64,000 nt of DNA from an uncultured Pseudomonadota bacterium (GTDB lineage Bacteria > Myxococcota_A > UBA796 > GCA-2862545). Where the stretch lies: positions 186,001 through 250,000 of the forward strand of contig CAJXTB010000003.1 of the NCBI GenBank assembly GCA_913061235.1. The letters are read 5' to 3'. Shown here in pieces: positions 7,640 to 33,594 of this stretch. Position numbers and translations under genes: made by a program. Numbering within the stretch: position 1 is the first letter of the stretch; every line of letters begins with the position of its first letter. The notes under the pieces are model-generated. The model had not been told where the DNA came from. It did not search any database and worked only from the letters and a program-made list of their open reading frames with translations.

Positions 7640-9859
7640 ATGACCGACCGTAACAACCCTGCTGATTGGCCCAAAGCCGGACCGATTGACCTGGCTATCC
7701 ACGACCTTCCGCATGCCTCATCGGACATGGAGTGGTGGTACATTCACGCGCACGTCACGCTGGTGGATGGCCGCGATGTCAGCCTGTTCTCAAGCTTTTT
7801 CCGGCAACGCGACCGCTCGGAAGCGCGCGGCGTGGACCGCCACGGCCACACCGTGTTGTGGGGAATCACAGATGTCGAAGGCCGCCGCTACTTGCCGCAG
7901 ATCCTGGCAGACGTTCAGTCTCCCGAGATTGCCATTGAGCGCCTGAACGCCAGCAAAGAAGAACGCGACCCACACATCCGCGACAGCCTTCTCGAGCTGC
8001 TCGAGACCGGCGTGCTGCCTCACCCGGACCGCAAAGCCCGCGCCGAAGCTCACGTCCCGACCGACCGTTTGGACTTGCGCTACGACGACAACGTCTTCAC
8101 CAAGCTCGATGACGGCCGCTACCGCATGGTCCTGAGCGGAGACGACGGAGAGCTCGGCTGCGACGTCATCATCACCCCTCGCAAGGGCCCGATTCTGCAC
8201 GGCGACAACGGCGTGGTTCGCGGAGTCAGCGGTGGAGACATGTTCTACTACTTCTTCCCCCGCTGCGACATTGAAGGCACCGTTCGCATGGACGGTAAGG
8301 ACGTCGAGATTGCCAGCGGAAACGCCTGGTATGACCACGAGTTCGGCATTGCTGGCGAAAGCGGACGCACCGTCGCGTGGAACTGGATGGGTATCCAACT
8401 AGACGACGGCCGCGAGCTGACCGCCTACGAGCTCATCTACACAGACGACCTGACGAGTGCTGGCGGCTGGTGTGTGCTCATCGACACCGAAGGAAAGCAG
8501 CACGTCTATGACGACTTCTCCTTCGCATCGAGCGACCCGTGGACCAGCCCGACTACGCTCATTGAGTACCCACGCCAGTGGGTCTTGACCGTTCCAGAAG
8601 CGGGCATCTCACTCAACGCGCACACCGCGATTGACCACCAGGAGCTGATCACCATGATCAGCGAGCCATCGTTCTACGAAGGCCGCATCACGCTCGAAGG
8701 CACCCAGAACGGCGTCGCGATTAGCGGTACTGGCTACCTGGAGCGCAGCGGATTCGAGCACAACCGCACCATCGGCGAGCACCTTGTGCGCGTGGGCAAG
8801 ACCACTCGTAAGATCGTGGCAGACCTCGTCCCCCGTCGTCCGACCCAGAGCGAGCTGGTTCGCATGGTCAGCGGCGAAGACGACCGCGGCCTGCTGGACG
8901 GAATCGATCTCGACCTCGTCGGCTCCCTGGCCCTCGACCCGGTCCGCGACATCATCGACCGTGGCGGCAAGGCCTGGCGCAGCTACTCTGTTCTGCTGTG
9001 CCGCGAGCTGTGGAAAGACGACCGCCGTGAGCCCAAGGGCATTCACAACTGGTTGGCCCTGCCCGAGCTTCTACACGCCGGCTCGCTCATCATCGACGAC
9101 ATCCAAGATGGCTCCAATGTGCGCCGTGGAAGTCCCGCCGTTCACCTGGAATACGGCATTCCGCTCGGCATCAACGCCGGCAACCTCGCCTACTTCTTGG
9201 GTGAGACCGTCGCTCAGGAATCCGACGCTCCAGACTCCGCGAAGCTCAAGATCTACGCCTGCTACTTCGAGGCCGTTCGCGCGGGTCACTTGGGCCAAGC
9301 GCTCGACCTCGCGGGCCCCGGCAAGCTGGTCGATGACGCTGTCGAGACCGGCGACCCCACCGCTCTGCTCGCTCACTTGGACTTGGTCTACAAGCTCAAG
9401 ACCGCCGTGCCCTCGCAGTCCGCTGCACGCATTGGTGGCGTGCTCGCAGAAGCACCAGAGGAGTGGATTCGTGGCCTAGAGAGCTACTTCTTGGAGCTAG
9501 GCATCGCCTTCCAGATGGTAGACGACGCCCTAGACATGCAAGGCTTCGAAGACAACCGCAAGGTTCGCGGAGGCGACCTGCTCGAGTCCAAGTGGACCTG
9601 GCCATCGGCCCTGGCGCTCAGCCGCTTGGACCTCGAAGACCGTCGCAAGCTGAGAGCCGGTATCGACAACCCGACACAAGAGGTCGTCGAAGAGCTGCTC
9701 GTCATGATTGGTGAGACCGGCGCCATTGAGGACACCAAGACCAAGGCACACAGCATGAGCAATGCTGCGTGGGCGACCGTTCGCCCCAACCTTCGCGATA
9801 GCCACGCTGTTGTGAGGCTGCGCGCCCTGTCTCGGTATCTCCTTGAGCGTAGGCGGTAA
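7640..9859 (+). CDS. CrtC/AttH-like hydratase domain fused to GGPP synthase
   Basis: The 739-residue protein joins two domains. Residues 1 to about 390 match the lipocalin-like AttH/CrtC (carotenoid 1,2-hydratase) family: SSDMEWWYIHAHV near the N-terminus, a YYFFPRCDIEGT segment, NAWYDHEFG and AYELIY. Residues from about 400 to the end are an all-trans prenyl diphosphate synthase of the GGPP type, with both aspartate-rich motifs intact: DDIQD at 486-490 and DDALD at 628-632. The second domain would condense IPP with allylic diphosphates in the cytoplasm. The first would hydrate a carotenoid or other prenyl chain, or serve as a lipid-binding module. There is no internal stop or frameshift, and GGGGA lies upstream of the ATG. 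Confidence 0.88.
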   Translation: MTDRNNPADWPKAGPIDLAIHDLPHASSDMEWWYIHAHVTLVDGRDVSLFSSFFRQRDRSEARGVDRHGHTVLWGITDVEGRRYLPQILADVQSPEIAIERLNASKEERDPHIRDSLLELLETGVLPHPDRKARAEAHVPTDRLDLRYDDNVFTKLDDGRYRMVLSGDDGELGCDVIITPRKGPILHGDNGVVRGVSGGDMFYYFFPRCDIEGTVRMDGKDVEIASGNAWYDHEFGIAGESGRTVAWNWMGIQLDDGRELTAYELIYTDDLTSAGGWCVLIDTEGKQHVYDDFSFASSDPWTSPTTLIEYPRQWVLTVPEAGISLNAHTAIDHQELITMISEPSFYEGRITLEGTQNGVAISGTGYLERSGFEHNRTIGEHLVRVGKTTRKIVADLVPRRPTQSELVRMVSGEDDRGLLDGIDLDLVGSLALDPVRDIIDRGGKAWRSYSVLLCRELWKDDRREPKGIHNWLALPELLHAGSLIIDDIQDGSNVRRGSPAVHLEYGIPLGINAGNLAYFLGETVAQESDAPDSAKLKIYACYFEAVRAGHLGQALDLAGPGKLVDDAVETGDPTALLAHLDLVYKLKTAVPSQSAARIGGVLAEAPEEWIRGLESYFLELGIAFQMVDDALDMQGFEDNRKVRGGDLLESKWTWPSALALSRLDLEDRRKLRAGIDNPTQEVVEELLVMIGETGAIEDTKTKAHSMSNAAWATVRPNLRDSHAVVRLRALSRYLLERRR

Positions 9860-9896: not shown

Positions 9897-12533
9897 ATGC
9901 GCCTATCGTCATCACTACTGTTGTCCGTTGCCCTCATTGCCTGCCGAGGCCCAGCCGGGGCTCCCGGTAGCAATGGTGAAGATGGCGTTGAGGGCCCCGC
10001 CGGGACCAACGCGCTCATTGAGCTGACGGAAGAAGCCCCCGGTGAGAACTGCTCAGACGGTGGCGTCGCGGTGACCTCGGGAACCGACCTGAACGGCAAC
10101 GGAGAGCTCGACGAAGACGAGGTCAGCGACGTCTACTACGTGTGCGACGGCCAAGGCTCCGAGCCTCCCCAGACTGTCCGCGTTGATGACGAACCCGCCG
10201 GCGACAACTGTGCCAATGGCGGTGTTGCTGTGCACTCCGGCGCCGATCTCGACCGCGATGGCCTGCTGTCTGACGACGAGATCGAAGAGACGTCCTACGT
10301 CTGCGAGCCCGACGCCCCGGCTGCAGTCCTTGTCGATGTGGAGACCGTCACCACCTCTGACGACTGTCCAGGTGGCGGCATCATCATCCATGCCGGCACC
10401 GACACAGATGCGGACGGCGTCCTAGGTCTCGAAGAGCGAGACCAGAGCACACCGGTCTGCGATGGCACGGACGGCAGCGACGTACTGGTCGAGACCTCAT
10501 CCGCACAGGAGTGCCCTGCCGGTGGCGTGGTCTTCCGCGCTGGCATCGACACCGACGACAACGGAATCCTGAACGACGACGAAGCCACCGTGGAGTCGAC
10601 CGTCTGCAATGGCGAAGACGCTATCCAGCCGATCGTAGACGTTGTGGATGCCGGAGATGACTGCGAGACCGGCGGCACCACCATCCGAACCGGACTCGAC
10701 GAAGACAACAACGGCACCCTGTCCGACGACGAAGTCGACAGCACCACATTCATCTGCGACGCCCCACCACCGGTCGTGGTTCGCGTAGATGAGCTCGACG
10801 CCGGCGACGCCTGCCCTGCCGGTGGCACCGCGGTCTCCACCGGACCCGACACAGACGGCGACGGCATCCTAGGCACGGGCGAAGAAGACAACACCATCAA
10901 CGTCTGCGCCGGCGAGACCCCACCCACAAGCCTGGTCGAGCAAGACGACGTGTCACCAGGCGGAGAGTGCGACAACGGCGGCATCGTCGTGCACTCAGGC
11001 CTCGACCTCGACGACAGCGGCACTCTCGACGACGGCGAACGAACCGGAACGCGCTTCGTGTGCAACGGCATCAATGGAGAGAACGGTCAGGACGGCGAAA
11101 ACGGGCAGGACGGCGAAAACGGGCAGGACGGTGAAAACGGGCTCAACGGCAGCACAGCACTCGTCCGCCTAGACCCCGAAGCACCCGGTTCCAACTGCCT
11201 GTACGGCGGAACGGCCATTCACTCCGGTCTAGACGTGGACAGCTCCGGAATGCTCGAGAGCGGCGAAGAGCAGTTCACCGAGTACGTGTGTGAGTCGCTG
11301 TTCTCGGGCCCAACTCCCAAGACCTTCACCGTTCGTGGGCTCACCAATATCCAGCACACGGCCATCAACGGAGACAACACCCCCTTCTCCACCGTCCCCG
11401 ACATGCGGCTCGAGTTCACTCTCGATGACGACTACGTGGTCATGGTGCAGTGGGACATCAATGTGGTCGCCGAAGGCACCAACGCCTGGGTCGCAACGCG
11501 CATCACGATCGACGGCGAAGCACTGCCCACGGCAACACACGTGCAGCCCAGCACCGTGGGAGAAGACGACCACATGCATGCCTTCCGCCTCATTGAGCTC
11601 GGGGCCGGTACCCACGTCATCGAAGGCGAATGGGGAGCCGGCCTGGGCGTGATGTCCAGCCCAGCTGCCAGCTCAGCGGACGTGTGGGGACGCCAACTGT
11701 CCGTTCTCGCCGTACCCGCCGCCTGGGAGCCCACGTACGGCTTCGCTAGCGGCGAGTCGAGCGCCTGTCACGACAGCTCGGGCTCAACGTGGACCCCCAT
11801 CCCCGACCTTGAGCTCACGGCGTCCTTGGCCGAGCCCTCCATCGTCTTTAGCCAGATGGACATGAACGTTGTGGGCGGTGCAGACCACTGGGTCTCAACG
11901 CGCCTGAACGTCTCCGACTCCCCCGATTCCTCCGGCACCCATGTCCAGCCGAGCACAAGCGGTGAAGACGACCACATGTCGCTGTTCCGAATCGACCGCC
12001 TCGACGCCGGCGACCACGCCATTGCTGCCGAGTGGGGCTACGGCGGCGGACAGATGTGCAACCCCATCAACGCGTCCAATCCTGTGTGGACCCGCGCGGT
12101 TGGCTACCTCGCGATTCCTGAGTCCACAGGTATTCAGTACGGGTACGCGGCTCCAAGTACCAACGTCAGCCGCAGCGCTGCAGCTCGCTGGGACACCATG
12201 CCGGACCTCAGCATCGACCTTGAGCTCACCGACGCCCCATGGTTCGCCACCTTCAGCACCATGGCGTTCGACTTCACCGGCGTCAGTGGCGCATGGGTAG
12301 GCGCACGCCTCACGCAGAACGGCCTTCCGAGTATGACGACCCACGCACAACCCCTCGGAAGTGGCGGAGAAGACGACATTCTCTCGGTTCACACTATGAA
12401 CTACGTACCGGCTGGGTACACCCCCATTCGTGGCCAGTGGGGACAAGGTGGCGGCACCGTGATTCAGAACGGTGCTGACCCCTACCGCAGTCGCCGGCTG
12501 GGCGTGCTGTCGCTGCCAGTCGCCCCCCGCTAA
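9897..12533 (+). CDS. Repeat lipoprotein with eight EF-loop-like Cys repeats
   Basis: The start at 9897 follows AGGGGA and gives a lipoprotein signal ending in ALIAC (Cys16). The mature 860-residue surface protein begins with a short collagen-like Gly-X-Y stretch. Seven repeats of about 48 residues follow, then a second collagen-like NGENGQD run, then an eighth copy. Each repeat contains two cysteines, a GG(V/I) motif and an acidic calcium-loop-like DxDxDGxL...DDE, similar to the DUF7151 domain of myxobacterial proteins. The C-terminal third contains three copies of a separate module marked by THVQPS, GEDDHM and EWG (the third copy is THAQPL/GEDDI/QWG). A calcium-dependent adhesive or structural surface role is inferred only. 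Confidence 0.8.
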   Translation: MRLSSSLLLSVALIACRGPAGAPGSNGEDGVEGPAGTNALIELTEEAPGENCSDGGVAVTSGTDLNGNGELDEDEVSDVYYVCDGQGSEPPQTVRVDDEPAGDNCANGGVAVHSGADLDRDGLLSDDEIEETSYVCEPDAPAAVLVDVETVTTSDDCPGGGIIIHAGTDTDADGVLGLEERDQSTPVCDGTDGSDVLVETSSAQECPAGGVVFRAGIDTDDNGILNDDEATVESTVCNGEDAIQPIVDVVDAGDDCETGGTTIRTGLDEDNNGTLSDDEVDSTTFICDAPPPVVVRVDELDAGDACPAGGTAVSTGPDTDGDGILGTGEEDNTINVCAGETPPTSLVEQDDVSPGGECDNGGIVVHSGLDLDDSGTLDDGERTGTRFVCNGINGENGQDGENGQDGENGQDGENGLNGSTALVRLDPEAPGSNCLYGGTAIHSGLDVDSSGMLESGEEQFTEYVCESLFSGPTPKTFTVRGLTNIQHTAINGDNTPFSTVPDMRLEFTLDDDYVVMVQWDINVVAEGTNAWVATRITIDGEALPTATHVQPSTVGEDDHMHAFRLIELGAGTHVIEGEWGAGLGVMSSPAASSADVWGRQLSVLAVPAAWEPTYGFASGESSACHDSSGSTWTPIPDLELTASLAEPSIVFSQMDMNVVGGADHWVSTRLNVSDSPDSSGTHVQPSTSGEDDHMSLFRIDRLDAGDHAIAAEWGYGGGQMCNPINASNPVWTRAVGYLAIPESTGIQYGYAAPSTNVSRSAAARWDTMPDLSIDLELTDAPWFATFSTMAFDFTGVSGAWVGARLTQNGLPSMTTHAQPLGSGGEDDILSVHTMNYVPAGYTPIRGQWGQGGGTVIQNGADPYRSRRLGVLSLPVAPR
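11079..11150 (+). repeat. 18-base in-frame tandem repeat (four copies)
   Basis: Four near-identical 18-base units of the form GAAAACGGGCAGGACGGC encode the collagen-like hexapeptide ENGQDG. The fourth copy has drifted to ENGLNG. The repeat lies between the seventh and eighth cysteine repeats and is a likely site of copy-number change by slippage. Confidence 0.85.
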
Positions 12534-13697: not shown

Positions 13698-14033
13698 ACG
13701 ACCTCCGGGCGCTCCGTTCTATCGCATCTGGCCAACAGGCCACGGCAACGCCCCGATACACTTGCACCGGCCCACCTCTCGTCAGACTGACAGATCCAAC
13801 ACCGCCAGCGATGGCCCGTGACCGAGCAAAGCATTGCATCAACCCGAGGTTGTTCCCGCACGTCGCCAACTATGCCCATCAGGTCCACAGAATGGCCCCC
13901 CAAGCGGGCATGGAACCATCACGACCGAGAAACCCGCTGCAGCGCGACATCACGATTGACCTTCCCTCTCGCACATTTTCCGGCTACTCTTTTTAGGTCG
14001 GCGTCTCCTCTGCCGACACACATAGAGGTGACC
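13698..14033. other. Intergenic region with small leader hairpin
   Basis: This 336-base gap separates two divergent genes. I see no convincing reading frame and no close consensus promoter. Near its right end GTCGGC (13997-14002) pairs with GCCGAC (14012-14017) around nine bases. AGAGGTG, the ribosome binding site of the following gene, lies just before the ATG at 14034. Confidence 0.4.
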
Positions 14034-15569
14034 ATGTCCAAGAAGCGTGCCGCTAAGGCTCCCGGAAAGACCGCCACGGAAGAAGCTGGAGCCGCGCAAG
14101 CTGCTCCCGAAGCATCCACCGACAACTCATTCATGGCCTCCATGCTCGGTGCGAAAGACCAGCAGGAACTGCAAGATGAGAAGGCAGCAACCACTCTGGC
14201 CTACAAGGTTGTCCGCCAGATGCAGTCGGACGGTGGCACCCTTAGAGAAGCGGACCCACGCTCTGGCTACATGCCTCCCGCCCTCGCCGCGGCCTTCAAC
14301 GCGGTCACCGGCCAAGACATGAGCGAGACCCCTATGTGGACCGCTGGGGTCGACAAAGAGGCCGATGAGCTCGGCGCTCTGGCATTCGCCAAAGACGAAG
14401 AAGTCTACATGCCCACTGCGTCGTGGAAGCCCACAGACATGGCATTTGAGCTGACACTGGCCGAAGAGTTCGCCCACGTCCTGCTCAACCACGTGCCTGT
14501 CGGGGGTCCCGTACGTCAGAACCACGGCGTCGTTGCCGAGATTGGCTTCATGAAGCGCGGGTCGAGTGGCCCGGGTGTTCGCGACCTACAGAACGCCCTC
14601 GTCAACGCCGGCTTCATGTCCGCACGCGACATGGCGACTGGCCCCGGCATCTTCGGTCGTCGTACCCACTCCGCAGTCGTCGCCTTCCAGGCAGCGAATG
14701 GCCTCGCTGTTGACGGCATTGTTGGCGCCGGCACACGCGGAAAGCTGCTGTCCGTCCTCATGGGGATGCACGATACCGGCGAAGAGCGTTCCTCCAGCGC
14801 ACACGGCAACGCGGACGTCTCGTTCACCGGTCGTCCCGCTCAGCGCAACGGTGACGAGGGTGTCCTCGTCAAGTCGCTCCAGCGCGCGCTGAATGCAAAG
14901 GGCGCCAAGCTCACTATCGACGGTGACTTTGGAAACAAGACCGCGAACGCGGTGCGTGCCTTCCAGTCTGCCAACAATCTCAAGGTGGACGGCATTGCCG
15001 GCGAAGGTACGGCAGCCGCGCTCGCCAACTCGTCCTCCAAGGACATCCCGGCAAACGCGACCGGGAACGCAACCCGCACGAGCAATGTAGAGGTCGACGT
15101 CGACGACGGTGACCCGCGCAACATCCTGGGCGACAGCCGAATCAGCCCCAAGATGCGCACCGTGGCCATCGCCACCATCAAGGACCTCCAGTCGCAGGGC
15201 CTTAAGCCGTACGTCATCAGTGGCTTCCGCAGCTTCGAGCAGCAGGACGAGATCTACAAGCAAGGCCGCACCAAGCCAGGCAACAAGGTCACATGGGTCA
15301 AGGGTGGAGGCTCATGGCACAACTATGGACTGGCAGTCGACATCGCCTTCTGGGACCGCTCGCACCGCACCGTCACTTGGGACGCCCCCAACAAAGACTG
15401 GTCAGCCATTGGTGCCGCCGGCTTGCGCAACGGATTCACCCGCTGGCTCGGGCCGCAGGGCGACCGTCCGCACCTTGAGTACCATCCGAAGGTCGGCAAT
15501 AGCGCAAGTGACATGCGGAACACTCACTCACGCGGTGGCTTGTCAGCCGTGTGGAATGCGGCAACGTAG
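14034..15569 (+). CDS. DUF4157-like / peptidoglycan-binding / M15 peptidase
   Basis: The 511-residue protein has no signal peptide and starts with a Lys/Ala-rich disordered tail. Residues about 85-160 resemble DUF4157, the domain common on contractile-injection-system cargo, but the HExxH zinc motif reads EEFAH (Glu144 replaces the first His). Two peptidoglycan_binding_1 repeats follow (about 180-250 and 265-325; GPGVRDLQNAL and GVLVKSLQRAL). Residues 360-511 form a VanY/M15-type LD- or DD-peptidase with the complete zinc triad His429-x6-Asp436 and His480. It probably cleaves peptidoglycan stem peptides. Lack of a signal peptide implies delivery by lysis or an injection machine, or a self-lysis role. 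Confidence 0.82.
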   Translation: MSKKRAAKAPGKTATEEAGAAQAAPEASTDNSFMASMLGAKDQQELQDEKAATTLAYKVVRQMQSDGGTLREADPRSGYMPPALAAAFNAVTGQDMSETPMWTAGVDKEADELGALAFAKDEEVYMPTASWKPTDMAFELTLAEEFAHVLLNHVPVGGPVRQNHGVVAEIGFMKRGSSGPGVRDLQNALVNAGFMSARDMATGPGIFGRRTHSAVVAFQAANGLAVDGIVGAGTRGKLLSVLMGMHDTGEERSSSAHGNADVSFTGRPAQRNGDEGVLVKSLQRALNAKGAKLTIDGDFGNKTANAVRAFQSANNLKVDGIAGEGTAAALANSSSKDIPANATGNATRTSNVEVDVDDGDPRNILGDSRISPKMRTVAIATIKDLQSQGLKPYVISGFRSFEQQDEIYKQGRTKPGNKVTWVKGGGSWHNYGLAVDIAFWDRSHRTVTWDAPNKDWSAIGAAGLRNGFTRWLGPQGDRPHLEYHPKVGNSASDMRNTHSRGGLSAVWNAAT

Positions 15570-15603: not shown

Positions 15604-16407
15604 ATGCGATTGTTGACACTACTGCTCGGGTTGAGCGCGTGTAGCTCCTCTGTCCCACAGGTTGCTGAACCTGCGCCTGTGGCAGCGGACGGACCGGTCA
15701 TTCCTCAAGCCGATGACGTTCGCGTCGCCTTCTTTGACACCCACTTCCACAACGACACGTGGTTCGCGGTCCCCGTGGCCTGTGTCACCCAAGAAGGGTC
15801 CGTCCTGGGCAACGAAGCCTGCGCACCAAAACTGACAGGTCAGGCCGCTACCTTGCCACCAGGACGCACGGTGCTTGGCGGCGTGACTACCGTGACCTGC
15901 GAGGCGACCGGTGCACGCGCCATGGCCGTCGTGGCGCCCATCGACGAGCCCCTCAGCTGGCAAGCAACGTGGGGCTACCTTGGCCAAGGCTTGCCATCTG
16001 GCTGGCACCTCGCGAGCCGTTCTCGCGCGGACGACGCCTTGCTGGAGCCGGCAATGAGCGCACTTGCGGGAAGCGGATGGCCTCTGTCGTCAGACGCCTC
16101 AGGCGTCCAGCTCGACGAGCGACTGGACCTCGAGGGTACCCGAGTGCTCGAAGCATTCGCCCCTTCCGATGACCCGGAAAAGCCCGGACACTCAGCACTG
16201 TTCCTGGCAGGCAGCGATATTCTGCCGCTCCCCACAGCGGGCTTGTCGCTCAACGGTCGTGTGCGAACGCCTGGCGCGTTTCCGGTCCGCAACAACGGCC
16301 ACATTCTCGTCCTGACCAGCGAGTGGATGGGAGGGTCAGGCGTTCACGCCGTACATCTCAGCGAAGACGGCCCCATCACGATTGGTGAGTGGGCCTGCGG
16401 GACCTAG
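15604..16407 (+). CDS. Lipoprotein of unknown function
   Basis: The 267-residue protein has a typical lipoprotein signal ending in GLSAC (Cys13, followed by Ser). The mature part contains a FFDTHFHNDTWF segment and several paired cysteines but no family I can name. Four bases (16404-16407, CTAG) are shared with the end of the convergent reductase gene, where both genes stop with TAG on opposite strands. The gap to the preceding peptidase gene is only 34 bases, so the two may be cotranscribed. Confidence 0.65.
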   Translation: MRLLTLLLGLSACSSSVPQVAEPAPVAADGPVIPQADDVRVAFFDTHFHNDTWFAVPVACVTQEGSVLGNEACAPKLTGQAATLPPGRTVLGGVTTVTCEATGARAMAVVAPIDEPLSWQATWGYLGQGLPSGWHLASRSRADDALLEPAMSALAGSGWPLSSDASGVQLDERLDLEGTRVLEAFAPSDDPEKPGHSALFLAGSDILPLPTAGLSLNGRVRTPGAFPVRNNGHILVLTSEWMGGSGVHAVHLSEDGPITIGEWACGT

Positions 16408-17965: not shown

Positions 17966-19189
17966 GTGGAGGCGGTGGGCCTGTATCCGACTCGCGTGGA
18001 CACTCGACCACAGACCCAGACCCATTCATCGGTTCCGGGCAGCGACAGATTGAACAGTCCGACTGTGGGCGCAGTCGATCTCACTGGATATGCCACGGTC
18101 ACTTACCGTTGGAGCCCCAAAATACGCGTCCCACAGCGACTAATACCTCTCATCGATCTCGGCGTTGTCGACGAGGTTGTACGGCCCCTCATGAGCGGAA
18201 AAGAGGCCGAGGTCTTTTTGGTGCGCAAAGGCGAAGAGCTTCGTGTAGCCAAAATCTACAAGGAAGCCTCCCGACGCAGCTTTAAGCACCGTGCCGAGTA
18301 CACGGAAGGCCGCAAGGTCCGCAATACGCGACAAGCCCGTGCCATGGCCAAGAGCAGTCGCTACGGCCGCGAAGAGACGGAAGCTGCCTGGCGGACTGCA
18401 GAAGTAGATGCGATCTATAAGCTTCAGGCCGCAGATGTGAAGGTGCCCCAGCCGTTCGACTATGTCGAAGGGGTCTTGGTCATGGAGCTCGTGCGCGGAG
18501 AAGACGGTCATCCCGCCCCTCGCCTCGTAGACATTGAGCTGGGCGCAGATGAAGCGCTGGACATGTTTCACGTGCTGCTGCGGGAGGTCGTCAAGATGCT
18601 CTGTGCTGGCATTGTGCACGGCGACTTGTCGGACTTCAACGTCCTTCTAGGCCCAGATGGCCCCGTCATCATCGACTTCCCACAGGCGGTCGACCCGGCA
18701 CAAAATAACAACGCCCAGAAGCTGTTGGTTCGCGACGTTCGCAACCTGACCAGCTTCTTCAGCCGCTACACCCGCAAGCTCCGCGGCACCCGCTACGGTG
18801 ATGAGATGTGGGCGTTGTACGCGAGCAACAAGCTCACGCCAGAGACCAAGCTCACCGGCAAGTTCAAGGGCGCCACCCACAAGGCCGACACCGGGTCGCT
18901 TCTGGAAGAAATCGCCAGCATCGAACGGGAAGTCCGCAAGCGTCGTGAGGCACTGGGGCTATCCATGCCCGCCCCGGCCAAAGACCCCGAGCCACTGCGT
19001 CTGTCCAATGGCCGCGTCATTAAGCCGCTCAAGCCCGGTGAGCCGCTGCCAAAGCGCGGCAAGAAGCAGCCGCCAAGGCAACAAGCACAGAGCAGCGACA
19101 CCTCGAAGAAGCGTCGCCGCCGTCGCAAGCAGCCGGTCGCCGAGACCACCTACGACCCTCTCGACGACTTTCTACTCATCGGTGATTGA
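17966..19189 (+). CDS. RIO-type atypical serine kinase
   Basis: This 407-residue member of the RIO1/RIO family is an atypical protein kinase or ATPase. The conserved core begins near RVPQRLIPLIDLGVVDEVV, followed by the nucleotide-binding LMSGKEAEVFLV and AKIYKE, the catalytic loop IVHGDLSDFNVLL and the metal-binding IIDFPQAVD. This matches bacterial RIO1-like proteins. The C-terminus carries a basic patch (KKRRRRRK) suggestive of RNA or ribosome contact, then an acidic end. The true start is uncertain: GTG at 17966 is 36 bases from the divergent reductase start, and later TTG or GTG codons before the core are possible. Confidence 0.85.
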   Translation: MEAVGLYPTRVDTRPQTQTHSSVPGSDRLNSPTVGAVDLTGYATVTYRWSPKIRVPQRLIPLIDLGVVDEVVRPLMSGKEAEVFLVRKGEELRVAKIYKEASRRSFKHRAEYTEGRKVRNTRQARAMAKSSRYGREETEAAWRTAEVDAIYKLQAADVKVPQPFDYVEGVLVMELVRGEDGHPAPRLVDIELGADEALDMFHVLLREVVKMLCAGIVHGDLSDFNVLLGPDGPVIIDFPQAVDPAQNNNAQKLLVRDVRNLTSFFSRYTRKLRGTRYGDEMWALYASNKLTPETKLTGKFKGATHKADTGSLLEEIASIEREVRKRREALGLSMPAPAKDPEPLRLSNGRVIKPLKPGEPLPKRGKKQPPRQQAQSSDTSKKRRRRRKQPVAETTYDPLDDFLLIGD

Positions 19190-25741: not shown

Positions 25742-27820
25742 CTACGCACTGCCTTCGGTCGCCGTGGCCTGTAGCTCGACTTTGCCAATGCACGCCAGCT
25801 TCACTGTGGGCAACAACTCTCCACTAGATACCACCGCAATTCGCGGAACCACGCGCTCTAGGAGACGACGCAGCGGACCACGGGCCAGCGGCGGCGCCAA
25901 CAGAATCGGTTGTGGACCCGATGCGGTCTTGCTGAGCTCTTCGACCGTCTGAGTCAAAATTCGCAGAACGGCCGGCTGAAGAGCCAGTGTTGGCAGGGAG
26001 CCTTCGCGACTCTGAAGACCACGGAGAATGGCAGACTCGGTGTCTTGGCCCAGGCCAATGAAGTGCAGCACACCGCCGTCATCCGAGAATCGGCGGGTGA
26101 TCTGACGCGCGAGACGCTGGCGAACAAACTCGGTGAGAACATCGGCATCACGGGACTTCGCCGCATTGTCGGCCAAGGCTTCGAGCACCGTCTGGGCGTC
26201 GCGAACGCTCAGCCCTTCACGGATGAGATTGCGGAAGACCTTGAGCACGGTGTGACGTGGAAGAGGGTCCGGAATGAGCTCATCAACAAGCTTCTCATCC
26301 ACCTCGCGCAGCCGCTCAAGCACGTTGTTGAGCTGGTTTCCGTCGTACAGCTCGTGCGCGTGCGCATGCATCAGCTCGACAAAATGAGTGGTCAATACGG
26401 TCGGAACATCCACGACCGTGTAGCCCTTGGCTTGGGCCTTGAGCACTTCGCCGTCTGGAATCCAGAAGGCTTTCAGACCATAGACCGGGTCGACTGTTTC
26501 AATGCCGCGAATGACGCCCGTCGCTGTTCCGGGGTCCAAGGCCAGATGTTTGCGGGCGCGAACTCGGGCCCGACCCACCTCTTCACCACGTACCCGCACA
26601 ACGTATTCACCACTCTCCAGTGCCAGGTCGTCGGTCAGATGTACGCTTGGAAGCACTACACCCAGGTCTTTGGCGAACTGGTTGCGAATCTTCTGGATGC
26701 GCTCACCCAGGGCACCCGCAGCACTCTCGTCGACCAAATACAGAAGGTCGAGCCCCACTTCGATGGTCAGAGGGTCAACCGTCAACAGATCAGAAGGTCC
26801 AAGCGGCACTTCCTCAGCGTGTACTTCTGCCTGTTGCTCGGCTTCGCGAGTGTCGCTGCCCCAGCGCCGGTAGGCCAGGTAGCCAACAATGACCGCAGCC
26901 GTCATAAATGGAATCCGCAAGCCAGGAATGAGGCCGAAGCACCCCAGTCCAAACGCGGACATCGCCAACACGCGCGGCTTCGCAAAGAGCTGGCCAAGGA
27001 CCTGGTCGTCGAGTGAGCTGTCGTCGCCATCAGCCACTCGGGTAACGAGCACACCAGCGGCAGTAGAGATGACGAGGGCTGGAACCTGCCCAACAAGACC
27101 GTCCCCAATGGTGAGGATGGTGTAGACCTTGGCAGCTTCCATCGCCGGCATGCCGTTCTGCACAATGCCAATGAACATGCCGCCGAGCACGTTGACCACG
27201 GTGATGATGATGCCCGCAATGGCGTCGCCGCGGATGAACTTACTGGCACCGTCCATGGCGCCGTAGAACTCGGCTTCCTGTGAGACTTCACGGCGCCGCT
27301 TCTTCGCTTGCGACTCATCGATAAGGCCGGCGTTGAGCTCCGCATCAATGGCCATCTGCTTACCGGGCATCGCGTCCAAGGTGAACCGAGCGGCGACTTC
27401 TGCCACGCGACCCGAGCCCTTGGTGATGACCACAAAGTTGATGACCACAAGGATGGCAAAGACCACCAAGCCAACCGCAAAGTTGCCCCCCACAACAAAC
27501 TGTCCGAAGGCCTCAATCACCCGCCCAGCAGCGTGGCTTCCGTCATGGCCATGCAGCAGAATCAACCGCGTACTCGCCACATTGAGGGACAGACGGAAGA
27601 CAGTAGATGCCAGGAGCAGAGTCGGGAAACTAGTGAACTGAACCGTCTTCTGGACCGTCAACGTGGTCAGAAAGAACATCAGGGACATGCCCACGGACAC
27701 TACCAATAGGGCGTCCATGACGGGCGGTGGCAGCGGTGCGAGCAGAATGACCAGCACAGCAAATACCGAGCCCGCCATTGCAAGTTCGCCGTGTCGGTCA
27801 ATTTTCTGCCACCAGGACAC
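25742..27820 (-). CDS. flhA: FlhA-family export gate protein
   Basis: I choose the GTG at 27820, seven bases after GGAGG; the adjacent GTG at 27823 is the alternative. The 692-residue protein is the FlhA/SctV export-gate subunit: about eight transmembrane helices in the first 320 residues and a soluble cytoplasmic domain after a linker at about 330-350. The signature FTLDAMPGKQMAIDAELNAGLI, and FYGAMDGASKFIRGDAIAGII in place of the LYGAMDGAMKF form of SctV, point to the flagellar FlhA branch. In a flagellum or injectisome it forms a nonameric ring that energises export. No other export gene is visible in this window, so it is isolated. Confidence 0.85.
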   Translation of the reverse strand: MSWWQKIDRHGELAMAGSVFAVLVILLAPLPPPVMDALLVVSVGMSLMFFLTTLTVQKTVQFTSFPTLLLASTVFRLSLNVASTRLILLHGHDGSHAAGRVIEAFGQFVVGGNFAVGLVVFAILVVINFVVITKGSGRVAEVAARFTLDAMPGKQMAIDAELNAGLIDESQAKKRRREVSQEAEFYGAMDGASKFIRGDAIAGIIITVVNVLGGMFIGIVQNGMPAMEAAKVYTILTIGDGLVGQVPALVISTAAGVLVTRVADGDDSSLDDQVLGQLFAKPRVLAMSAFGLGCFGLIPGLRIPFMTAAVIVGYLAYRRWGSDTREAEQQAEVHAEEVPLGPSDLLTVDPLTIEVGLDLLYLVDESAAGALGERIQKIRNQFAKDLGVVLPSVHLTDDLALESGEYVVRVRGEEVGRARVRARKHLALDPGTATGVIRGIETVDPVYGLKAFWIPDGEVLKAQAKGYTVVDVPTVLTTHFVELMHAHAHELYDGNQLNNVLERLREVDEKLVDELIPDPLPRHTVLKVFRNLIREGLSVRDAQTVLEALADNAAKSRDADVLTEFVRQRLARQITRRFSDDGGVLHFIGLGQDTESAILRGLQSREGSLPTLALQPAVLRILTQTVEELSKTASGPQPILLAPPLARGPLRRLLERVVPRIAVVSSGELLPTVKLACIGKVELQATATEGSA

Positions 27821-27940
27821 CACGGTGCCTCCAATGGGGCCCAGTCGGTCACACCCGCTAGATCTTGAGAGGGAAAGTTTGATGGATGCAGGGCTCAAGT
27901 GGACGGCCCTACGAACCGAAACACCTGGCAGAGGACATCC

Positions 27941-32391: not shown

Positions 32392-33594
32392 ATGGGCCCC
32401 CTCGTCATTGGCATGGTCGGACTTCCGGCACGCGGCAAGACCTTTGTCGCGAGCCAGATGTCCCGGTACTTGGCGTGGCAAGGGGTTCGCGCGCAGATCT
32501 TCAACGTCGGCAACCGCCGGCGTGCATTGTTCGGCGCCAAAGTTCCCCACGGGTTCTTTGACCCCAGCAATCCAAACGGCATGGCGTCACGTCGAGAAGC
32601 TGCGCAAGCCACAATGGACGAGGTCCTGGCTTTCTTCGCAGACGGCGGTGAGGTGGCGTTCTATGACGCGACCAACACGACCCACTCGCGCCGTAGCTGG
32701 GTCCGCGAGGTCTGCAGCCAAAACGGGATTCAAGTCGCCTTTGTCGAGCTCTCTTGCGACGACAACGACATCATTGAGCGCAATATCCGCCAGACTAAGC
32801 TGTTCTCGCCCGACTACACCGGGGTGCAAGCAGACGAAGCAGTGGCCGATTTTCGACGACGCATTGACCACTACAGCACCGTCTACGAGCCCCTAGGCGA
32901 CGGTGACCCGGCATGGGTGCGACTGGTAGACGCAGGTCGTCAGTTCATTCTCACCGACCCCGAACGGGTGATTCCGCGACGGCTCACCGACTACCTGGCG
33001 AACCTCTCGGCCGTTCCACGCACCATCTGGGTCACCCGTCATGGCCAGTCCGAGTTCAACACCTCTGGCCAGCTCGGCGGCGACTCTCCCCTGTCCCCCG
33101 CCGGTCAGCGCTACGCACACTCGTTGGGAGAGTTCTTCCGCCCTCGCCCTGTGTCCCGCGTGTGGAGCAGCACGCTTCGCCGCGCCCGCCAGACAGCCAG
33201 CGCACTCGGCACCACCCACAGTCCGAGACGCGCCCTCGACGAAATCGATGCCGGCGTCTGTGACGGGCTGACCTACGCTGAAATTGCCGCACGTCGGCCC
33301 AACGAGTTCGCCGCACGCCAAGCGGACAAGCTCGGCTACCGCTACCCAGGCGGCGAGTCCTACGCAGACGTCATCGAGCGCCTAGACCCCATGGTTCTAG
33401 ACCTCGAACGCACCCGAGGACCGGTCCTGCTAGTCGCACACCAAGCCATCATTCGCTCGCTACTAGGCTACTTCTTAGACATCCCACGTGAAGAAATCCC
33501 ACACGTCGACGTCCCGCTGCACACCGTGATTGCACTGCACCCACATGGGCCCGGCTACCGCGAAGAGCGCTTCCCGCTAGACCCAAGGCTGTAA
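32392..33594 (+). CDS. Bifunctional 6-phosphofructo-2-kinase / fructose-2,6-bisphosphatase
   Basis: The 400-residue protein combines both domains of the eukaryotic PFKFB enzyme, which makes and removes the glycolytic regulator fructose 2,6-bisphosphate. The kinase half shows the P-loop GLPARGKT (residues 10-17), FNVGNRRR, FYDATNTT and KLFSPDY. The phosphatase half is a histidine phosphatase with TRHGQSEFN, GGDSPLSPAG, EIDAGVCDGLTYAEI, YRYPGGESY and LLVAHQA. All motifs that define the family are present and in the eukaryotic order. It starts six bases after the stop of the preceding lipoprotein gene. Confidence 0.88.
   Translation: MGPLVIGMVGLPARGKTFVASQMSRYLAWQGVRAQIFNVGNRRRALFGAKVPHGFFDPSNPNGMASRREAAQATMDEVLAFFADGGEVAFYDATNTTHSRRSWVREVCSQNGIQVAFVELSCDDNDIIERNIRQTKLFSPDYTGVQADEAVADFRRRIDHYSTVYEPLGDGDPAWVRLVDAGRQFILTDPERVIPRRLTDYLANLSAVPRTIWVTRHGQSEFNTSGQLGGDSPLSPAGQRYAHSLGEFFRPRPVSRVWSSTLRRARQTASALGTTHSPRRALDEIDAGVCDGLTYAEIAARRPNEFAARQADKLGYRYPGGESYADVIERLDPMVLDLERTRGPVLLVAHQAIIRSLLGYFLDIPREEIPHVDVPLHTVIALHPHGPGYREERFPLDPRL

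What the first reader, a model, noticed from the sequence alone, without database searches (positions are those of the whole stretch)
14034..15569. DUF4157-like, peptidoglycan-binding, M15 peptidase without signal peptide
The order of a DUF4157-like domain with a mutated zinc motif (EEFAH), two peptidoglycan-binding repeats and an intact M15 zinc triad (His429, Asp436, His480) suits a cargo toxin. DUF4157 is a common mark of contractile-injection-system cargo. No injection machine or immunity gene is visible here.
Basis: partly seen in the sequence, partly recalled or inferred. Interest (0 to 1): 0.6.

Follow-up and report, generated by a model that had tools for sequence, protein, structure and literature searches.

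The report
Likely eCIS-delivered peptidoglycan-cutting cargo protein
This bacterial gene encodes a cell-wall-cutting enzyme joined to the marker domain of proteins carried by phage-tail-like "syringes"; the same genome does encode such syringes, so it is probably one of several interchangeable cell-wall-cutting payloads, although delivery itself has not been shown.

Summary
In detail: a 511-aa signal-less protein (14034-15569) carries a hydrophilic N-tail, an eCIS_core/DUF4157 domain with EEFAH in place of HExxH, two PG_binding_1 repeats and an M15C peptidase with intact H429/D436/H480. Alone, its eCIS_core match is below Pfam's cut-off (17.9 vs 22 bits), but close relatives pass (39.4, 46.5 bits) and profile-profile comparison with this genome's ordinary eCIS_core proteins is strong (98.4%, E 1e-14). 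Relatives in the same order form a small modular family, eCIS_core + PGB x2 + M15 or NlpC/P60, with signs of module exchange; an NlpC/P60 paralogue sits elsewhere in this genome. All ten relatives compared keep HExxH. The gene lies far from any eCIS operon, and no immunity gene is conserved beside it. Best reading: a periplasm-acting, antibacterial eCIS cargo. The kind is known (eCIS-associated toxins; 68 predicted ones have peptidoglycan-binding domains). Loading, injection and toxicity are inferred.

The parts
14034..15569 (+). P0001, 511-aa signal-less eCIS_core + PGB x2 + M15C protein
14025..14030 (+). ribosome-binding site GAGGTG
   Evidence: sequence
14034..14162 (+). hydrophilic, low-complexity N-tail (aa 1-43), no Sec-type signal
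   Evidence: hydropathy; pLDDT under 50 for aa 1-43
14121..14150 (+). weak match (DNSFMASMLG, aa 30-39) to the GNxx-hydrophobic-xxxL motif of eCIS_core N-tails; not relied on
   Evidence: PWM p 0.12
14271..14483 (+). eCIS_core (DUF4157) domain, aa 80-150
14463..14477 (+). EEFAH in place of HExxH, aa 144-148
14547..14753 (+). PG_binding_1 repeat 1, about aa 172-240
14862..15023 (+). PG_binding_1 repeat 2, aa 277-330
15153..15506 (+). M15C (L-Ala-D-Glu endopeptidase-like) domain, aa 374-491, with H429, D436, D477, H480
15604..16407 (+). downstream lipoprotein gene (LSAC lipobox), considered as immunity gene; not conserved, so not supported

Best explanation
P0001 is an eCIS cargo protein that acts on peptidoglycan. 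Its hydrophilic N-tail and eCIS_core domain, the latter working as a recognition or docking module that no longer needs a zinc site, bring the enzyme from the cytosol to the tube or spike of the eCIS particle (inferred by analogy). On contraction it would be released into a target bacterium's periplasm, where two PG_binding_1 repeats hold it on the cell wall and the M15C domain cuts the stem peptide, most likely between L-Ala and D-Glu, weakening or lysing the cell (inferred from Ply500). It belongs to a small module-swapping set, confined to this order among the genomes searched, in which eCIS_core + PGB x2 is joined to M15 or NlpC/P60. Shown from sequence: domains, active-site residues, family, signs of module exchange, eCIS genes in the genome. 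Not shown: loading, injection, target, toxicity.
For: eCIS_core assignment via relatives over the cut-off and profile-profile comparison (98.4%, E 1e-14). eCIS operon in the genome and a second sheath/tube cluster; no T6SS sheath. No Sec-type signal although the substrate of M15C and PGB lies outside the cytosol. M15C active site intact. Same N-part with different hydrolases in relatives and in a paralogue in this genome; conflicting N- and C-domain trees. Published precedents: Cgo1/Cgo2 of AlgoCIS have a disordered tail + DUF4157 + differing C-termini and fill the tube (PMC8894135); DUF4157 is in 36% of known eCIS toxins versus 0.06% of other proteins, and 68 predicted ones have a PG-binding domain (PMC11297309); a DUF4157 cargo active only with a periplasmic tag (PMC12210884).
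Against: The gene is on another contig than the eCIS operons, whereas 88% of known eCIS toxins lie within ten genes of theirs (PMC11297309). P0001's own eCIS_core score is under the cut-off and its HExxH is lost. No conserved immunity gene. Some architecturally similar PGB hydrolases lack a detectable eCIS_core. eCIS is near-universal in the order, so co-occurrence gives no support.
Confidence: 0.6

Rival explanations
1. Penetration enzyme: the eCIS_core domain docks the hydrolase at the spike or baseplate, where it opens the target cell wall so that the tube and other cargo can pass, as tail-tip peptidoglycan hydrolases do for phages. It is then part of the machine, not a toxin.
For: DUF4157 proteins were co-purified with or shown to bind spike and tube-initiator proteins of Streptomyces CIS (PMC11126660; PMC13277306). 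PGB + hydrolase suits local wall opening. No conserved immunity gene.
Against: Several different hydrolases per genome, scattered away from the eCIS operons and present in only part of the eCIS-bearing genomes of the order, fit variable cargo better than a structural part.
Confidence: 0.13
2. Release enzyme: the protein is an endolysin-like enzyme that lyses the producing cell so that eCIS particles can leave.
For: Best PHROG matches are endolysins (phrog_2649, E 1e-54); no signal peptide, as in holin-dependent endolysins.
Against: No holin or phage genes around it; not linked to the eCIS operon; an eCIS_core domain is not needed for self-lysis; two or more different hydrolases in one genome.
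Confidence: 0.12
3. No link to eCIS today: a decayed former cargo, or a housekeeping wall enzyme that kept a degenerate eCIS_core domain and leaves the cell or acts by another route.
For: Degenerate zinc motif, housekeeping neighbours, a RIO-kinase gene nearby in both this genome and relative G023, a FHIPEP export-gate gene about 10 kb away, relatives without detectable eCIS_core.
Against: No Sec signal. The rest of the eCIS_core domain is still recognisable, the M15 active site is intact, and coding signal is strong. Published Cgo1 toxicity did not need the zinc motif (PMC8894135).
Confidence: 0.15

Closest known systems
eCIS-associated toxins (EATs) with DUF4157, including predicted ones with a peptidoglycan-binding domain (Danov 2024, PMC11297309; Geller 2021, PMC8213781)
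   Same: Hydrophilic N-terminus, N-terminal DUF4157, C-terminal enzymatic domain, eCIS in the genome
   Different: Not within ten genes of an eCIS operon; HExxH lost; the particular eCIS_core + PGB x2 + M15/NlpC set was not found described in the papers read
Cgo1/Cgo2 cargo of AlgoCIS (PMC8894135)
   Same: Disordered tail + DUF4157 + variable C-terminus
   Different: Different C-terminal domains; genes inside the eCIS cluster; loading proven there, not here
M15C endolysins Ply500 (2vo9) and LysB4 (6akv)
   Same: Catalytic domain with all Zn ligands and the acidic residue before the last His
   Different: No eCIS_core in these endolysins; phage genes there, no phage context here
T6SS peptidoglycan-hydrolase effectors
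   Same: Would work alike: periplasmic wall hydrolase sent by a contractile machine (general knowledge)
   Different: No T6SS sheath gene in this genome; no cognate immunity gene

Membership tests
eCIS_core / DUF4157 (PF13699) | Profile match over the gathering score | tested here: inconclusive
   P0001 17.9-21.4 bits against 22; relatives L052 39.4, L053 46.5, L054 22.6 pass; hhalign 98.4% E 1e-14
eCIS_core / DUF4157 (PF13699) | HExxH zinc motif | tested here: not met
   EEFAH at 144-148; all ten relatives compared keep HExxH
eCIS-associated toxin (EAT) | N-terminal DUF4157 with a C-terminal enzymatic domain and a hydrophilic, non-Sec N-terminus | tested here: met
eCIS-associated toxin (EAT) | eCIS machinery in the same genome | tested here: met
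eCIS-associated toxin (EAT) | Gene near the eCIS operon (typical, not obligatory) | tested here: not met
   Gene on contig C3; operons on C1 and C22
eCIS-associated toxin (EAT) | Loaded into particles; toxic to target | not testable with these tools
   Needs particle proteomics and a toxicity assay
M15C L-Ala-D-Glu endopeptidase | HxxxxxxD...H zinc triad and preceding acidic residue | tested here: met
   H429, D436, D477, H480 aligned with 2vo9 and 6akv
Phage endolysin (prophage gene) | Phage or holin genes around it | tested here: not met
   Housekeeping-type neighbours
T6SS effector | T6SS in the genome | tested here: not met
   No TssC/VipB match
Polymorphic toxin with immunity gene | Conserved cognate immunity gene next to the toxin | tested here: not met
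   Downstream lipoprotein has no homologue in 62 other genomes of the order; relatives have different neighbours

The most novel reading that the evidence does not exclude
Bacteria of this uncultured order load a dispersed, module-swapping arsenal of peptidoglycan hydrolases (M15, NlpC/P60 and, without a detectable eCIS_core, CHAP, L,D-transpeptidase or transglycosylase types) into their eCIS and use the particles against other bacteria, with sorting specified by a short N-terminal motif (GNxx-hydrophobic-xxxL) plus an eCIS_core domain that needs no zinc site.
Probability: 0.25. Interest if true: 0.75.

Novelty: new member of a known kind. Interest (0 to 1): 0.45.

Why it matters
The best-studied eCIS act on eukaryotic hosts. 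A set of wall-hydrolase cargo in a lineage where eCIS is near-universal would point to bacterial targets. A member with a naturally dead zinc motif is also a test case for what the widespread DUF4157 domain does: if it still loads, the domain is a docking module and not a protease.

Tried and rejected
Co-occurrence of the family with eCIS across the order: saturated, so not informative. Downstream lipoprotein as immunity gene: no homologue elsewhere in the order. T6SS delivery: no TssC. Prophage endolysin: no phage context. AU test on the N-terminal tree of all 11 rows did not reject the M15 members as one side of a branch (p 0.24); the conflict appears when the N- and C-domain trees of the five M15 members are compared, with only five sequences, one of them (L053) with a disrupted reading frame. 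GN motif: strong in 19 held-out eCIS_core tails (15, against 0.33 by shuffling), but P0001's own match is weak (p 0.12), the looser pattern tested on the family was partly chosen after seeing it, and only 1 of 9 plasmid DUF4157 proteins with annotated starts has it; it is not used as evidence for P0001. The AlphaFold model is poor overall (pLDDT 56.5 from four sequences) and says nothing firm about the eCIS_core fold.

Full report
Observation. The 511-aa reading frame at 14034-15569 starts behind a GAGGTG ribosome-binding site and has a strong coding signal. Pfam gives two PG_binding_1 repeats, an M15/VanY domain and, under the cut-off, eCIS_core at residues 80-150 (17.9 bits, cut-off 22).

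Is the eCIS_core domain real? Alone, P0001 is borderline. Its relatives settle it: L052 (46% identical overall) scores 39.4 bits, L053 46.5 and L054 22.6. Profile-profile comparison of the family's N-terminal domain with six ordinary eCIS_core proteins of the same genome gives probability 98.5%, E 1.5e-15; with only P0001, L052 and L053 it gives 98.4%, E 1e-14. All ten relatives compared keep HExxH; P0001 alone reads EEFAH (GAA GAG TTC GCC CAC), so the putative zinc site is lost in this member.

Catalytic domain. phmmer against the PDB finds Ply500 2vo9 (E 3e-18) and LysB4 6akv (E 4e-18); the HNYGxAVD and DxPHxE motifs align. Foldseek on the weak model also ranks 2vo9 and 6akv first. This points to M15C, an L-Ala-D-Glu endopeptidase, rather than a D-Ala-D-Ala carboxypeptidase.

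Machine. The genome (7.18 Mb, 72 contigs; window = C3:186001-250000) has an eCIS operon on C1: Tail_P2_I, Baseplate_J, gp25, GPD hub, CIS_tube+LysM, gp19 tube, two sheaths and Pvc16_N, and a second sheath/tube cluster on C22. Nine other eCIS_core matches are scattered over the genome. No T6SS sheath was found.

Family. Seven of the 63 genomes held of the order have eCIS_core + PGB x2 + hydrolase proteins; a search of 377 genomes of the phylum gave outside the order only one partial, repeat-only match at E 1e-40 or better. With M15: P0001, L052, L053, L054, L076. With NlpC/P60: L051 (paralogue in this genome, contig C19), L055, L056, L097, L098. L100 has the same N-domain with an unrelated C-terminus. 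Similar signal-less PGB proteins without a detectable eCIS_core carry NlpC/P60, CHAP, YkuD or transglycosylase domains. For the five M15 members, the N-domain tree groups P0001+L052+L053 (100/100) and the C-domain tree groups P0001+L054 (98/98); each dataset disfavours the other's grouping (AU p 0.0002 and 0.035; pairwise identities). This indicates module exchange, with the caveats of five sequences and one disrupted gene (L053); the tree of all N-domains by itself does not require it.

Context. P0001 stands alone: an oppositely oriented gene with a kynureninase-like C-terminal domain upstream, a lipoprotein gene 34 bp downstream, then a pyridine-nucleotide oxidoreductase. The lipoprotein has no homologue in 62 other genomes of the order and relatives have different neighbours, so no conserved immunity gene is seen; a fast-evolving one is not excluded.

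Mechanism. By analogy with Cgo1/Cgo2 of AlgoCIS (disordered tail, DUF4157, differing C-termini, located in the tube lumen; Cgo1's toxicity independent of the zinc motifs; PMC8894135) and with DUF4157 proteins associated with the spike in Streptomyces (PMC11126660; PMC13277306), the tail and eCIS_core domain most likely dock the enzyme to the particle, while the PGB repeats and the M15C domain act on the target's wall. A DUF4157 cargo active only when sent to the periplasm is on record (PMC12210884). Loading, target and toxicity remain inferred. The main weakness is the distance from the eCIS operons: 88% of known eCIS-associated toxins lie within ten genes of theirs (PMC11297309).

Novelty. 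eCIS-associated toxins with DUF4157 are known, and 68 predicted ones have a peptidoglycan-binding domain (PMC11297309), so this is a new member of a known kind. I did not find described an order-restricted eCIS_core-PGB2 set with exchanged hydrolases, or a member with a dead zinc motif; the held library lacks preprints and most subscription papers, and the published supplementary lists could not be read.

Side observation. Among 19 held-out eCIS_core N-tails of the order, 15 contain GNxx[VILMF]xxx[LIVM], against 0.33 expected on shuffling; 7 of 260 background proteins contain it, one of them (L058) itself a related PGB protein. Danov et al. state that no specific conserved sequence was detected in eCIS signal peptides. 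P0001's DNSFMASML is only a weak match, and of nine plasmid DUF4157 proteins from other phyla with annotated starts one has it. It deserves a proper test.

Noticed in passing
L117-L143 N-terminal tails; L065, L150, L157: Motif GNxx-hydrophobic-xxxL in 15 of 19 N-tails of ordinary eCIS_core proteins in the order (0.33 expected by shuffling), also seen in a Nostoc and a Streptomyces plasmid locus. Possible cargo-sorting tag; published work reports no conserved sequence.
   Followed up: partly
window 25742-27823 (-): FHIPEP-family (SctV/FlhA) type III export-gate gene, apparently without neighbouring T3SS or flagellar genes in the window.
   Followed up: no
window 32392-33594 (+): Fused 6-phosphofructo-2-kinase and histidine phosphatase domains, a eukaryote-like bifunctional layout.
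   Followed up: no
window 7640-9859 (+): CrtC/lipocalin domains fused to a polyprenyl synthetase in one 739-aa frame.
   Followed up: no
window 9897-12533 (+): Lipoprotein with eight DUF7151 repeats and a collagen-like stretch.
   Followed up: no
L066:9276-18546 (G000:C1:450-459k): Signal-less PGB + YkuD_2 (L,D-transpeptidase) protein, a 1439-aa protein without Pfam match and a small lipoprotein gene close by on the same strand; may be another cargo locus.
   Followed up: partly
L100:1435-3192 (G050:C628): Same N-terminal eCIS_core subtype as the NlpC/P60 members, fused to a C-terminus without a Pfam match and without PGB repeats.
   Followed up: no
window 18065-19189 and L069:12103-13305: A RIO-type kinase gene (64% identical) lies about 2.5 and 5 kb downstream of the hydrolase gene in this genome and in G023, hinting at an old shared position.
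   Followed up: partly
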